From Pseudomonadales bacterium (GTDB taxonomy: Bacteria; Pseudomonadota; Gammaproteobacteria; Pseudomonadales; Pseudohongiellaceae), in NCBI GenBank assembly GCA_022822865.1, contig JAJDYJ010000039.1, positions 62,001 through 126,000 of the forward strand: 64,000 nt of DNA, in the 5' to 3' direction. This document shows positions 54,029 through 60,987 of the stretch, piece after piece (position 1 is the stretch's first letter; each line of letters opens with the position of its first letter). Made by a program: the position numbers and the translations under genes. Under the pieces are notes generated by a model, which saw only the letters and a program-made list of their open reading frames with translations, made no database searches and was not told the origin of the DNA.

Positions 54029-55306
54029 ATGAAGTCTCACTGGTTCACCGCTTTTATCCTGCTGACGCCCTTCATTCTGAACAGTTCTGCTTTCGCCAAC
54101 GAGGGCAGTATCGCTTTCACCGGCGCCACGATCATCGACGGCACCGAGGCCGCTCCACTGCCGGACGGCGTGCTCGTCATCACCGACGGGCGCGTGCGCA
54201 GTATCGGGCCGGCGTCCGAAGTCAGCATTCCCGCGGATGCGCAGCGCATCGACGTCAGCGGCAAGACCATCATGCCCGGCATGATCAACGCTCACGGGCA
54301 TGTCGGCGACACCCTGGGACTGGAAACCGGCCACTACAGCCGCGAAAACGTGCTCGACCAGCTTGGCCTTTATGCGCGTTACGGCATCACCACGGTGCTC
54401 AGCCTCGGCGGCGACGAGGCGCCGGGCTTCCAGGTGCGCAACGAACAATTCCACGCCGGGCTGGACCGGGCGCGGTTATACGTTGCCGGTAGCGTCGTCA
54501 ACGGCGAGACTTCGCCGGAAATTCGCAGCCAGTTGAACGCCAATGCCGACCTGGGCGCTGACTACATCAAGACGCGGATCGATTCCGAACTCGGCCAGTT
54601 GCCGACGCTGGCGCCTGAAGTGTTTCAGTCATTGATGGACCTGGCGTCGAGCCGCCGGCTGCCCGTGGCGGTGCATATCTACTATCTGGAAGACGCGCGC
54701 ATGGTGCTTGAGGCCGGCGCCGACATCATCGCCCATTCGGTGCGCGACCTGGAAGTCGACCGGGATTTCATCGACCTGATGATCGAGAACGACGCCTGCT
54801 ACATCCCCACCATGATGCGCGACGTTTCGACTTTCGTGTACGAGACCGAGCCCGATTTCTTCTCCGACCCCTTTTTCCTGGCCGAGGCCGACCCGGCGGT
54901 CATCGCCGAACTGAGTACGCCCGAGTATCGCTCGGGCATCCGCAACAGCGCCGCCTCCCAGCAATACAAGGCGGATTTGCCGAACGCGCTGGTCAACGTG
55001 GGGCTGCTGCATGAAGCCGGCGTGCGCGTCGCCATGGGCACCGACACCGGCCCGCCGGCGCGCTTTCAGGGCTATTTCGAACACGAGGAAATGCAGATGA
55101 TGGTGGACGCGGGCATGAGCCCGCTCGACGCCATTCGCGCCGCTACCGGCGAAGCCGCGCAATGCATCGGTCAAAGCGAGATCGGCACCCTCGAACCCGG
55201 CAACTGGGGCGATTTCATCGTACTCGACGGCAACCCGGCCCAGGATATCGCCAACACCCGCCTCATCGACAGCGTCTGGATAGCCGGCAACCGCGTCCCG
55301 CGCTGA
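54029..55306 (+). CDS. Exported amidohydrolase (imidazolonepropionase/HutI-like fold)
   Basis: This 425-residue metal-dependent amidohydrolase has a signal peptide (ending near NSSAFANE). It has the metal ligands HxH in INAHGHV, a likely carboxylated Lys in YIKTRID, His in VHIYY and IAHSV, and Asp in MGTDTGPP. The C-terminus EIGTLEPGNWGDFIVLDGNP is typical. It resembles the periplasmic amidohydrolases of marine heterotrophs that act on cyclic amides, dipeptides or organophosphates; the substrate is unknown. It follows tRNA-Arg. Confidence 0.86.
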   Translation: MKSHWFTAFILLTPFILNSSAFANEGSIAFTGATIIDGTEAAPLPDGVLVITDGRVRSIGPASEVSIPADAQRIDVSGKTIMPGMINAHGHVGDTLGLETGHYSRENVLDQLGLYARYGITTVLSLGGDEAPGFQVRNEQFHAGLDRARLYVAGSVVNGETSPEIRSQLNANADLGADYIKTRIDSELGQLPTLAPEVFQSLMDLASSRRLPVAVHIYYLEDARMVLEAGADIIAHSVRDLEVDRDFIDLMIENDACYIPTMMRDVSTFVYETEPDFFSDPFFLAEADPAVIAELSTPEYRSGIRNSAASQQYKADLPNALVNVGLLHEAGVRVAMGTDTGPPARFQGYFEHEEMQMMVDAGMSPLDAIRAATGEAAQCIGQSEIGTLEPGNWGDFIVLDGNPAQDIANTRLIDSVWIAGNRVPR

Positions 55307-55309
55307 TTT

Positions 55310-56179
55310 TCAGGGGCAGGGATCCTCGCCTTGCACCGGGGTTGCGCCTGAGGGCAGGAAGCGGCACGGGTCGGCGTCTTCGAGCATCACTCTCGCTCCG
55401 GCGCGAATGATTGCGCCGGTGCCCGGCGCCTGGAAGAAGTTGTAGCCTTCCCGCGTAGTCATCCAGGCCGAAGGGCCGCCGAGATATTTGCCGGCACTGG
55501 TTGTTGCGCCAACGACATCGTCCACCAGACCTTCGTAATACGGGTCGCCCTGTCTGGCGCCGCTGAAACTGCCGAGGTCGGAACTGGCGACGAAGACGAC
55601 ATCGACGCCGTCTACCGCGGAGATTTCGCCGGCGGCTTCCACGCCTTCCACGGTCTCGATCATGGCGATAATCATGATGTTTTCATTGGCGCTCTGGCGA
55701 TAGCCGCCGCCCCAAATCGCGCCGTATTGGCCGCCGCCCTGGCTGCGGCGTCCCTCCGGCGGGTACTTGGCGAAACGCACGGCGTTTTCCATTTTCTCCG
55801 CGGTGTCGACCATCGGCACGATGATGCCGAGAGCGCCGATGTCGGTCGCCTTCTGGATATCGCCTTCGGTGGCGTCAGGCACGCGGATGAAGGGAATCGC
55901 CGGTGCGTCGCGGCAGGCGAAGATCATGCGCGCCACGTCGGTGTAGTTGAGATGGCTGTGCTGCATCTCGATCCAGATGAAATCGAAGCCCGCGCCGGCC
56001 ATGGCGCAATAGATTTCCGGATCGGCCGTCGACACGGTACCGCCGAGCACCTGCTCGCCGGCTTCGAGCTTGGCCTTGACGGTGTTGTAGAGCCCGCCGT
56101 CCTGGGCCGGAACCGCGGCGGACCAAAGCAGGGCCGCCATGGTGGGAAACAGGTATTTCAGTAATCTGTTCATTTTCAC
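55310..56179 (-). CDS. Exported HpcH/HpaI-type aldolase
   Basis: This 289-residue class II aldolase of the HpcH/HpaI (2-keto-3-deoxy or HHED aldolase) TIM-barrel family has metal-site residues in the IAMIETVEGV and FVASSDLGSF segments and a catalytic region IWIEMQHSH. Unusually, it carries an N-terminal signal peptide (FPTMAALLWSAAVPAQ), implying periplasmic action. It lies 30 bases downstream of the selenoprotein gene on the same strand, so the two may be one operon. Its real substrate is unknown. Confidence 0.82.
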   Translation of the reverse strand: MKMNRLLKYLFPTMAALLWSAAVPAQDGGLYNTVKAKLEAGEQVLGGTVSTADPEIYCAMAGAGFDFIWIEMQHSHLNYTDVARMIFACRDAPAIPFIRVPDATEGDIQKATDIGALGIIVPMVDTAEKMENAVRFAKYPPEGRRSQGGGQYGAIWGGGYRQSANENIMIIAMIETVEGVEAAGEISAVDGVDVVFVASSDLGSFSGARQGDPYYEGLVDDVVGATTSAGKYLGGPSAWMTTREGYNFFQAPGTGAIIRAGARVMLEDADPCRFLPSGATPVQGEDPCP

Positions 56180-56209: not shown

Positions 56210-57094
56210 TCAGACTTCGGAAATCATCGGCGCTCTCGTTTCACCGGACGCCTTCGCGGCAACCTGTTGTTGCCGCCGTTTTTCGCCGCGCAGCCGCAGT
56301 TCCTCGCGGTTGCTGTCGTCCACCCTGGCGTATTCGTCGCGCCATTCGTCGCCGCCGCGCCAGCCGAGGCTGGTGCGCCAGGTCGTTTCCGGACCTTCGG
56401 CCTCTTCGAGCAATTTCAGCCCCCGGCGCACGATGCCGATCTGGCTGAGGATATCCCCGGGAGCGCCGCAGGGATTGCCGAGCGGAAAATCGGTATGCAG
56501 ATAACGGGCGACGCCGCAATGTTCCACCACGTCAAGGGCGCTGCCGATGATCACGGTGGGAATTCCGTTCTCTTCCAGGTGCCGGCTGACCAGACTCACG
56601 GTCTGGTGACAGACGGGTCACAAGGGCACGAGCATGGCCACGTCGATATGATCTTCGCGGCATAGCTCGAGAATCCTTGGCGCGTCCTTATCCGTAGTAT
56701 TGCGCTTGCTGTATTCCGTCGGCACGGAATAGAAGCGGCCGGAAAGGCTTTCGAACACTCCCGCGCGCGCCGTATTGCGCAAGTGATTGAGCGGCAGAAA
56801 GCTGCCGAGATCCCTGGTATGCGTGACGGTCTTCTGCCAGGACAACTCGTCCGTATACATCGATTCCGGCGTCGGCGTCGACATCGAGGCATGGACCTGC
56901 CGCTTCGCCCGGCCTTCGACCGTGTCCGGCATCGCCGTCGTGATCAGCCCCAGGCGGCATTCGCGCAAGGGTTTCGGCAGCGGCGTAAAAGGCATTTCGT
57001 CGTGGTGGGCCCAGACGTAATCCTTCTCGTATCCCTGGGCCCGGTAGTAATCCCGGGTGCGCTGAATGTAGGGAACGTCATACTTGCCCGGCAT
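56210..57094 (-). CDS. GrdB-like selenoprotein with in-frame UGA (selenocysteine 159)
   Basis: This gene of 294 codons is read through a single in-frame TGA at 56618-56620. The 158 codons before it (MPGKYDVPYIQRTRDYY... to VAMLVPL) and those after it (PVCHQTVSLVSRHLEENG...) are in the same frame. Together they form a protein of the glycine/sarcosine/betaine reductase selenoprotein B family: UPVC matches the U-x-x-C of GrdB, and GIPTVIIGSALD and TDFPLGNPCG match its following segments. No signal peptide is seen. The start has a clear AAGGAG site. A SECIS-like hairpin follows the TGA. No GrdA, GrdC or GrdD gene is nearby, so the reaction is unknown; a thiol/selenol redox or reductive cleavage is likely. 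Confidence 0.85.
56586..56612 (-). promoter_or_regulatory. Bacterial SECIS-like hairpin for selenocysteine insertion
   Basis: On the minus strand the mRNA after the TGA folds as ACCAGAC / GTCTGGT (7 bp perfect) closing a five-base loop CGTGA. A further 3 bp CTG/CAG pairs below it, separated by a two-base UC bulge on the 5' side. The loop begins 17 bases after the TGA and has the conserved G in its first two positions. This matches the expected bacterial SECIS geometry, including a bulged U. Confidence 0.7.
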
Positions 57095-57169
57095 TTGTGG
57101 CTCCTTGGTCTTAAAGTCGGGACTCCGGCGGCAGAATAACCCGATAGGAATCGAAGGAAAAGCGCGACG

Positions 57170-57986: not shown

Positions 57987-59060
57987 ATGACCAGATACTT
58001 GCCGCCGATAGCCCTTGCGCTGCTGCTTGCCGTGGGCGTCGCACAGGCGCAACAGGGAGACGACAACATGAACTCGCAATCCCCGGTGGACGGCGTCAGC
58101 AGCCGGTTCATTGAAAGCAACGGCATTCGCATGCGCATTTTCGAGGCGGGCGATTCCGGGCCGCTGGTGCTGCTGGCCCACGGCTGGCCGGAATCCTGGT
58201 ACAACTGGCGGCACCAGTTGACCGCGCTCGCCGACGCCGGTTATCGCGCCGTGGCGCCGGACATGCGCGGCTACGGTGAAACCGATGCGCCGCCCGACGT
58301 GGACGATTACGATATCGTCGATCTGACCGACGACATGGTCGGCATTCTCGACGCTCTCGGCGAAGAGACCGCGGTCATGGTGGGACACGATTGGGGCGCC
58401 ATCGTCGCCTGGCATGCGGTCGTGCGTTATCCCGAGCGCTTCGACGGACTCATCGCCATGAGCGTGCCTTATGGCGGCACCGCGCCGCGTTCGCCGATGG
58501 AAGGCTGGCGCGAAGCCTTCGGCGACAATTTCTTCTACATCCTGTACCACAACGAGCCGGGCGGAGTGGCTGAAGCGGAATACGACAGCGACCCGCGCGG
58601 CTTGATCAGCCGGCTGTACCTGTCGCCGAACTCTCCCCGCCAGGCGCCGGTTATCACCGACCCGTTGCGTGCGGCGGGGGGCTGGATCGGGCGGCTGGGT
58701 GCGCCGACCGGACTGCCCGACTGGCTCACCCAGGATGATCTCGACTATGTTGTCGGCCAGTTGGAGCAGGCCGGATTTCGGGGTGGCATCAATTACTACC
58801 GGAACTTCCACAGTAACTGGGAAATCAGCCTGGAATACGAAAGCGACCGCGTCACCGTGCCGACGATTTTCATCGCCGGGGCAGGGGATATGGTTATCGG
58901 CGGCGCCACCGCGGAGCAATTGACCGCGTCTATGTCAAGGGTGACCGACGATCTGCGCGGCGTGGTGCTGATTCCCGAAATCGGCCACTGGGTGCAACAG
59001 GAAGCGCCCGAAGAGACCAACGCGGCGATGCTGGAGTTTCTCGGCGGGCTGGACCTCTAG
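57987..59060 (+). CDS. Exported epoxide hydrolase-like alpha/beta-hydrolase
   Basis: This 357-residue alpha/beta-hydrolase has a signal peptide (ALALLLAVGVAQAQQ). It has the epoxide-hydrolase/dehalogenase pattern: HGWPESW (oxyanion HGxP), an Asp nucleophile at residue 135 in VGHDWGAIVAW, two Tyr residues in the cap region and His in EIGHWVQQE. The Asp nucleophile rather than Ser makes epoxide or halide chemistry more likely than esterase activity. ATG 57987 follows a GGAGGG site. It converges on the methyltransferase gene 10 bases away. Confidence 0.87.
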   Translation: MTRYLPPIALALLLAVGVAQAQQGDDNMNSQSPVDGVSSRFIESNGIRMRIFEAGDSGPLVLLAHGWPESWYNWRHQLTALADAGYRAVAPDMRGYGETDAPPDVDDYDIVDLTDDMVGILDALGEETAVMVGHDWGAIVAWHAVVRYPERFDGLIAMSVPYGGTAPRSPMEGWREAFGDNFFYILYHNEPGGVAEAEYDSDPRGLISRLYLSPNSPRQAPVITDPLRAAGGWIGRLGAPTGLPDWLTQDDLDYVVGQLEQAGFRGGINYYRNFHSNWEISLEYESDRVTVPTIFIAGAGDMVIGGATAEQLTASMSRVTDDLRGVVLIPEIGHWVQQEAPEETNAAMLEFLGGLDL

Positions 59061-59733: not shown

Positions 59734-60987
59734 TCATGCAAGTAGTGTCTTTACCGCAGCCACGGCGCGGTCGACGTGTTCGACCGTATTGTAGATTGTC
59801 GGGCACAGCCGCAGGCCACCGGTGGCCGCACCTGCGATTCCGTGCTCGCGATACAGGCGATCGACGATTTCGCCTCGCTGCGCCGGGTCGAGATTCGTGA
59901 TGCAAACGCTGTGGCTGAATTCGGGGGCCATCGGCGTCAGCAGTTTCAGTCCGGCATCGGCTATGCCTTGCTTGAGATGTTGCGCGAGTTGGGCGATGCG
60001 CTGTTCGATTCGCTCGGGCCCTATCGTATCGTGAATGCCGGCGGCCACGCCGAGCCCGGCCAGCGCCGCGTCGTCACGCTGACCCAGCGATTCGAACTTG
60101 CGCGCGCCGGCCAATGAAGTCTCCGGGCCGTTGCCCCAGCCCGGCGCGACGACCGAAGGCCAGATTTCGGCGATGCGCGACTCCCTGACATAGAGCAGGC
60201 CCACTTCTTTCGGCCCCATGTACCATTTGTGCGCGCTGGCTGAATAGGAATCGACTTCGAGATCGCGCAGGTCCATTGCCATGGCGCCCCAGGTCTGGGC
60301 GCCGTCGAGATGTACGTGGATGCCGCGCTCGCGGGCAATGCGCGTCAATTCCTTCACCGGTAGCTTGATGCCGCTGACGTTGGAGACGTGTGTAATCGCC
60401 AGCACCCTGGTGTTGTCCAGAAATTCGTCGGCGAAAGCATCGATCAGTTCCTGAGCCGATTGCGGCGCTTCCGGAGTCTGTACTTTGCGCACCTGGAATC
60501 CGTAGCGTGCCGCGCGAACCTCCCAGGCGACGTTGTTGGTGGGATGATTCTGGTCCCAGACAAGCACATCGTCGCCGGCCTGCAAGGGCAGGCCGGCGTT
60601 TACGATGTTGTTTGCCTCGGAGGTATTGCGCACCAGCGCCACCTCGTCCGCCGAGACATTCAGTTGCGCGGCCACTCGGACGCGCGTTTCTTCCAGCAGG
60701 TCGGAGAACTTGCCCCGATTGTTGAATGAGCAATCGCGGTCGATGTCGGCCGTGAGCGAGGACACATTCTCCGCCACGGCGCGGAAGGACGGACACAGAT
60801 TGGCCGCGTTCATGGGAACGGCTTCCTCTGTAAACGAGAACTGGGCGCGCACCATCTCCCAATACGATTCATCCTGACCGGGCGCCGCGAGATGCTGCTG
60901 CGCCTGGGCGGCCGACATGCCGGCCCCGCCAAGCATCAGGGCGCTCGTGGTCTGTAGGAATTCGCGTCGTGTCTGCGATCTGGTCAT
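59734..60987 (-). CDS. Tat-exported class V aminotransferase-fold protein
   Basis: This 417-residue PLP enzyme of the isopenicillin N epimerase/cysteine desulfurase-like group has a twin-arginine signal (TRREFLQTTSALMLGGAG) and an AQAQ cleavage site, so it is folded and cofactor-loaded before export. PLP-site motifs are RNTSEANNIV, WDQNHPTNN, HLDGAQTWGA and the PLP-lysine segment SASAHKWYMGPKEVGLLY. It lies between a CaiB-type transferase gene and a methyltransferase gene. Its amino-acid or sulfur substrate is unknown. Confidence 0.86.
   Translation of the reverse strand: MTRSQTRREFLQTTSALMLGGAGMSAAQAQQHLAAPGQDESYWEMVRAQFSFTEEAVPMNAANLCPSFRAVAENVSSLTADIDRDCSFNNRGKFSDLLEETRVRVAAQLNVSADEVALVRNTSEANNIVNAGLPLQAGDDVLVWDQNHPTNNVAWEVRAARYGFQVRKVQTPEAPQSAQELIDAFADEFLDNTRVLAITHVSNVSGIKLPVKELTRIARERGIHVHLDGAQTWGAMAMDLRDLEVDSYSASAHKWYMGPKEVGLLYVRESRIAEIWPSVVAPGWGNGPETSLAGARKFESLGQRDDAALAGLGVAAGIHDTIGPERIEQRIAQLAQHLKQGIADAGLKLLTPMAPEFSHSVCITNLDPAQRGEIVDRLYREHGIAGAATGGLRLCPTIYNTVEHVDRAVAAVKTLLA

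What the first reader, a model, noticed from the sequence alone, without database searches (positions are those of the whole stretch)
56210..57094. GrdB-like selenoprotein with a UGA-coded selenocysteine, unlinked to glycine reductase partners
The gene has an in-frame TGA at codon 159. The next codons give P-V-C, so the motif is U-x-x-C, as in GrdB. The downstream GIPTV and PLGNPCG segments fit the same family, and both halves stay in one frame with no other interruption. A SECIS-like hairpin follows at the right distance. No GrdA, GrdC, GrdD or prd genes are in the window; instead an exported aldolase gene follows. This suggests a stand-alone selenoenzyme in a genome that otherwise looks aerobic. 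A simple gene caller would call two short genes.
Basis: partly seen in the sequence, partly recalled or inferred. Interest (0 to 1): 0.88.

Follow-up and report, generated by a model that had tools for sequence, protein, structure and literature searches.

The report
Stand-alone PrdB-like selenoprotein in marine bacteria
A gene that looks split in two by a stop codon is really one gene in which that codon adds the rare amino acid selenocysteine; it belongs to a selenoprotein family already known from marine bacteria, whose exact job is still unknown.

Summary
On the minus strand, 57094-56210 is one 294-residue gene whose codon 159 (TGA, 56620-56618) is read as selenocysteine (Sec). The genome carries selA, selB, selC and selD. 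All 17 loci from other species (61-92% identical) keep TGA there, as do 29 of 30 matches in related genomes; the 30th is a fragment ending before it. More distant relatives carry Cys at exactly that position. A hairpin 17 nt after the UGA fits the bacterial SECIS model: its five codons show 97% synonymous identity against 40% across the gene, with two compensatory pair changes. The interpretation needs correcting. The protein is nearer PrdB than GrdB and misses the curated cut-offs of both. Its UxxC motif lacks GrdB's third Cys. PrdA, the pyruvoyl partner, was not found, although the same search finds it in a control. The gene is not without context: a HpcH/HpaI aldolase follows in 21 of 30 relatives, and an alpha/beta hydrolase diverges upstream in 26 of 33. 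Sec-containing 'PrdB' proteins of aquatic bacteria have been known since 2005. This is a well-supported new member of a known family of untested function, most likely a selenol/thiol redox enzyme and not a proline or glycine reductase.

The parts
56213..57094 (-). PrdB-like selenoprotein CDS, 294 aa, with Sec at residue 159 (stop TGA at 56212-56210)
   Evidence: homologues; NCBIfam TIGR04483 E 1e-19
56618..56620 (-). UGA codon read as selenocysteine (residue 159 of motif U-P-V-C)
   Evidence: TGA in all 17 GTDB loci and in 29 of 30 related-genome matches, the exception being a fragment without this region; Cys at this position in L042-L045 and L088
56589..56607 (-). bacterial SECIS apical hairpin ACCAGAC-CGUGA-GUCUGGU; core 56591-56605 (codons 164-168)
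   Evidence: fold; synonymous identity 0.97 vs 0.40 mean; two compensatory pair changes
57101..57106 (-). Shine-Dalgarno-like AAGGAG, 6 nt before the ATG at 57094
   Evidence: sequence printed
55310..56179 (-). HpcH/HpaI-type aldolase with a signal-peptide-like N-terminus, 30 nt downstream, same strand; conserved neighbour
   Evidence: Pfam PF03328 E 2.5e-23; same-strand downstream in 21 of 30 relatives with enough flank
57987..59060 (+). alpha/beta hydrolase with a signal-peptide-like N-terminus, divergent; conserved neighbour
   Evidence: Pfam PF00561 E 7e-30; divergent upstream in 26 of 33 relatives
54029..55306 (+). amidohydrolase with a signal-peptide-like N-terminus, convergent with the aldolase; frequent neighbour
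   Evidence: Pfam PF01979; seen downstream in 13 relatives

Best explanation
The gene encodes a 294-residue PrdB-like selenoprotein. SelB, carrying Sec-tRNA(Sec) made with SelC, SelA and SelD, binds the hairpin just after the UGA and inserts Sec at residue 159; comparative evidence supports this step very strongly, but no experiment has been done. In the AlphaFold2 model the Sec lies between a beta-strand and a helix of a Rossmann-like alpha/beta fold, with Cys162 as its UxxC partner. Inferred: it works as a selenol/thiol redox centre, in which a selenolate attacks a substrate or peroxide and Cys162 resolves the selenyl-sulfide. Because PrdA is absent, it is probably not a D-proline or glycine reductase. 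It more likely acts alone, or with the neighbouring aldolase and alpha/beta hydrolase, in reducing or detoxifying an organic or peroxide substrate.
For: Sec decoding: selC 66 bits over cut-off and ARAGORN tRNA-SeC(tca); selB 346 bits; selA 579 bits; selD 250 bits. TGA conserved in 17/17 loci at 61-92% identity and in 29 of 30 related-genome matches, the 30th being a fragment. Sec/Cys exchange at the same column, at least two changes on the tree and most simply three; Cys form L088 keeps a SECIS-like sequence and is sister to Sec form L092 at 100/97 support. SECIS: codons 164-168 synonymous identity 0.97 vs 0.40, 0 of 100000 random draws as high; compensatory G-C to A-U (L092, silent in the protein) and A-U to U-A (L068); published bacterial SECIS constraints met (PMC13188914). 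Family: TIGR04483 hit in 29/29 members; 26% identity to a clostridial PrdB with Sec aligned to Sec. Among cysteines only the Sec/Cys159 and Cys162 columns are invariant. PrdA not found, with a working positive control. Model pLDDT 89.7.
Against: No biochemical or proteomic data. The substrate is unknown, and no solved structure matches convincingly. Gene neighbourhood suggests partnership but does not prove it; several relatives lack the aldolase next door. The GrdA search had no working positive control.
Confidence: 0.85

Rival explanations
1. It is a true D-proline or glycine/betaine reductase B subunit working with an unrecognised partner encoded elsewhere in the genome.
For: Homology to PrdB over residues 36-232, including U-x-x-C-H; the Sargasso Sea authors filed marine sequences of this kind under proline reductase PrdB (PMC1088965).
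Against: PrdA not found in a 96% complete genome while the same search rings at 969 bits in a prd operon; GrdA not found (weaker test); score far below the equivalog cut-off (71 vs 300 bits); conserved neighbours are an aldolase and a hydrolase, not prd genes.
Confidence: 0.08
2. The TGA is a real stop: the gene is a pseudogene, a frameshift artefact, or two separate genes.
For: A standard ORF list shows two ORFs.
Against: The same TGA in many assemblies with intact frames on both sides, Cys replacements exactly there, RNA-level conservation of the hairpin, and a complete sel gene set.
Confidence: 0.01
3. The protein is mainly an antioxidant enzyme (peroxidase or disulfide reductase) and the aldolase and hydrolase neighbours are incidental.
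For: UxxC is a redox motif, listed as such for this family (PMC1088965); a paper whose title reports peroxidase activity of GrdB is cited in PMC3091704 (title only); the genome has a haem-copper oxidase.
Against: Conserved synteny with aldolase (21/30) and hydrolase (26/33) suggests a catabolic context; no thioredoxin-fold match was seen in the structure searches.
Confidence: 0.3

Closest known systems
Marine 'proline reductase PrdB' selenoprotein family (Sargasso Sea and GOS selenoproteomes)
   Same: Sec in a UxxC motif, homology to PrdB, abundant in aquatic bacteria; 42 and 235 Sec forms reported (PMC1088965, PMC2398784)
NCBI 'glycine/sarcosine/betaine reductase selenoprotein B family protein' (e.g. 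WP_207415257.1, Roseomonas haemaphysalidis)
   Same: 43% identity over 86% of the query
   Different: That protein has Cys (TGC) instead of Sec and its hairpin sequence is not kept; different neighbours
Clostridial D-proline reductase PrdB (TIGR04483)
   Same: Same domain, Sec aligned with Sec, U-x-x-C-H
   Different: 26% identity, 71 bits against a 300-bit cut-off, extra C-terminal extension, no PrdA found in the genome
Glycine reductase GrdB (TIGR01917)
   Same: Distant homology of the Sec-containing part (E 2e-4)
   Different: Lacks GrdB's N-terminal part; UxxC where GrdB has UxxCxxC (PMC13188914); below cut-off; no GrdA found

Membership tests
UGA-encoded bacterial selenoprotein | Genome encodes selA, selB, selC and selD | tested here: met
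   all over curated cut-offs
UGA-encoded bacterial selenoprotein | In-frame TGA conserved among orthologues, Cys in other homologues at the same column | tested here: met
UGA-encoded bacterial selenoprotein | bSECIS: 3-9 nt loop, 4-16 bp upper stem, G in first two loop positions, 16-37 nt from UGA, MFE at most -7.5 kcal/mol | tested here: met
   loop CGUGA, 17 nt, -16.4 kcal/mol; constraints from PMC13188914; covariation
UGA-encoded bacterial selenoprotein | Selenium shown in the protein | not testable with these tools
   needs 75Se labelling or mass spectrometry
D-proline reductase PrdB (equivalog TIGR04483) | Score above the curated cut-off of 300 bits | tested here: not met
   71 bits
D-proline reductase PrdB (equivalog TIGR04483) | Pyruvoyl partner PrdA in the genome | tested here: not met
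   no match in G000 (96% complete); positive control 969.5 bits
Glycine reductase GrdB | Score above TIGR01917 or TIGR01918 cut-off | tested here: not met
   20.2 vs 602 bits and 21.3 vs 65.45 bits
Glycine reductase GrdB | UxxCxxC motif | tested here: not met
   U159-P-V-C162-H-Q-T165; residue 165 is T or S in 28 of the 29 aligned members and A in the other, never C
Glycine reductase GrdB | GrdA partner in genome | tested here: inconclusive
   no match, but no positive control rang
PrdB-like / selenoprotein B family in the broad sense | Homology to the PrdB/GrdB Sec domain with UxxC | tested here: met
   29 of 29 members match TIGR04483 and TIGR01918 at E up to 0.01

The most novel reading that the evidence does not exclude
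A stand-alone selenoenzyme that, with an apparently exported HpcH/HpaI aldolase, an alpha/beta hydrolase and often an amidohydrolase, forms an undescribed pathway of marine Gammaproteobacteria with aerobic respiration, in which a selenolate performs a reductive cleavage or detoxification different from proline and glycine reduction.
Probability: 0.3. Interest if true: 0.6.

Novelty: new member of a known kind. Interest (0 to 1): 0.35.

Why it matters
A 2026 review says aerobic bacteria rarely retain selenoproteins (PMC13188914), yet most sampled members of this genus keep this one with a nearly frozen SECIS, and the studied genome has a haem-copper oxidase. The family is abundant in aquatic samples and I found no tested function for these stand-alone forms. 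The conserved neighbours and the naturally occurring Cys forms make the question 'what does it reduce, and why does it need selenium' directly testable. The practical lesson is that automatic gene calling splits it in two.

Tried and rejected
No relatives in viral contigs. No related solved structure by sequence; Foldseek gave no hit with E at or below 0.001; the best VIA-align Z was 8.6, to LacI/periplasmic-binding folds, which may reflect only a common alpha/beta arrangement and is not used as evidence. A weak Pfam hit to 2-hydroxyglutaryl-CoA dehydratase D (E 0.048) and a bzdN hit in one member were judged too weak. Single-sequence folding alone would not have established the SECIS (z -0.95). 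An off-by-one error in the hydrolase coordinates was found, and the neighbourhood count was redone; hydrolase figures are not used. Two paper searches found nothing. Rejected: sequencing error, pseudogene, frameshift.

Full report
What is there. The finding's coordinates are right, but the gene lies on the minus strand, from ATG 57094 to the stop at 56212-56210. Codon 159, at 56620-56618, is TGA in the context L-V-P-L-U-P-V-C-H-Q-T-V. Both halves stay in one frame with no other stop. A mechanical ORF list gives two pieces of 158 and 129 residues. An AAGGAG sequence precedes the ATG by 6 nt.

Is the TGA selenocysteine? First, machinery. The genome (3.2 Mb, 105 contigs, 96% complete) has tRNA-Sec on contig C5 (66 bits, over cut-off; ARAGORN anticodon tca), SelB 18 kb away (346 bits), SelA (579 bits) and SelD (250 bits, in a frame that continues an N-terminal oxidoreductase-like part). 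The finding's own refutation test (no selB/selC) therefore does not refute it.

Second, conservation. A scan of one genome per species gave 17 loci at 61-92% identity, all with TGA at the same codon. A search of 58 genomes found matches in 30, the window's own included. Twenty-nine have exactly one internal TGA, and the exception is a fragment covering profile positions 2-93, which ends before the Sec codon. More distant relatives either keep TGA (L046, L047, L077, L092, L098) or carry cysteine exactly there: the TGC codon was read in L042-L045, L088 and Roseomonas L099, and the translations of the L079-L093 group show Cys. A tree needs at least two Sec/Cys changes and most simply three. One Cys form, L088, is sister to the Sec form L092 (100/97 support) and still carries a SECIS-like sequence.

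Third, the SECIS. The hairpin core CAGAC-CGUGA-GUCUG (56605-56591, codons 164-168) has its loop 17 nt after the UGA, a 5-nt loop with G in second position, and an MFE of -16.4 kcal/mol for the 48-nt stretch. This satisfies the published bacterial SECIS constraints (PMC13188914). Among pairs of Sec homologues that share the amino acid, these five codons are identical in 97% of comparisons against 40% for the gene, with 0 of 100000 random draws as high. In L092 a G-C pair became A-U through two changes that are silent in the protein, and in L068 an A-U pair became U-A. The four distant Cys forms examined have a broken hairpin. By energy alone the hairpin would be unremarkable (z -0.95).

What the protein is. 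NCBIfam places it nearest PrdB (71 bits, cut-off 300), then the betaine, sarcosine and glycine reductase B proteins at 20-32 bits, all below cut-off. All 29 aligned members match the PrdB model. It aligns with Peptoclostridium PrdB at 26% identity, with Sec on Sec and the U-x-x-C-H motif shared. GrdB's third cysteine (UxxCxxC, PMC13188914) is Thr, Ser or Ala in the aligned members. Among cysteines only the Sec/Cys159 and Cys162 columns are invariant. PrdA was not found in the genome, while a positive control rings at 969 bits. GrdA was not found either, but that search had no working control. The AlphaFold2 model is confident (pLDDT 89.7) and puts Sec159 between strand 152-156 and helix 160-175. 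Structure searches gave nothing beyond common alpha/beta arrangements.

Surroundings. The gene is followed after 30 nt by an HpcH/HpaI aldolase (Pfam E 2.5e-23) on the same strand. In relatives the aldolase lies same-strand downstream within 12-165 nt in 21 of 30 loci that have enough flank, and an alpha/beta hydrolase lies divergently upstream in 26 of 33. The window's aldolase, hydrolase and amidohydrolase have signal-peptide-like N-termini by eye; this was not tested. So the gene has a conserved context of its own, different from the prd operon seen. The genome also has a haem-copper oxidase subunit I (460 bits), consistent with aerobic respiration.

How it most likely works. Supported by comparison: Sec insertion at 159 directed by the hairpin. 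Inferred: Sec159 as nucleophile with Cys162 resolving, as in the mechanism proposed for PrdB (PMC3091704), but without a pyruvoyl partner and hence on a substrate other than D-proline. Peroxidase or disulfide chemistry is the main alternative.

Known or new. Sec-containing PrdB-family proteins were the third most abundant known selenoprotein family in the Sargasso Sea set (42 genes, UxxC), and 235 were found in GOS samples. I could not align to those sequences directly, so the identity of this clade with theirs is inferred from the shared motif, the PrdB homology and the habitat. This gene is best treated as a new member of that known kind. The added points are the frozen SECIS with compensatory changes, the repeated Sec/Cys exchange, the absence of PrdA, and the conserved aldolase/hydrolase context.

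Noticed in passing
L018 (G000:C98:25753-26649, minus): SelD is encoded in a 773-residue open frame behind an oxidoreductase-like domain, apparently the known Ndh-SelD fusion type, with Cys rather than Sec in the CGGCGAKV motif.
   Followed up: partly
L088 (G621:C1:2994344-2994844): A Cys-containing relative retains a SECIS-like sequence (CAGACCGTGAGCCTG), apparently a fossil of recent Sec loss; the same genome has a second, different Cys paralogue (L097).
   Followed up: partly
L048 (G265:C42:5160-5573): A much more distant TGA-containing homologue (motif U-P-A-C) in a genome that also has a Cys form (L044), suggesting a further Sec subfamily.
   Followed up: no
window 59737-60987 (-): Class V aminotransferase resembling the periplasmic PvdN and cysteine desulfurases but below all cut-offs; neighbour in several relatives.
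   Followed up: no
G000 contigs C5, C71 and C98: The sel genes are dispersed (selC and selB 18 kb apart, selA and selD on other contigs), unlike the selA-selB-selC operon described for Pseudomonadales in PMC1794560.
   Followed up: no
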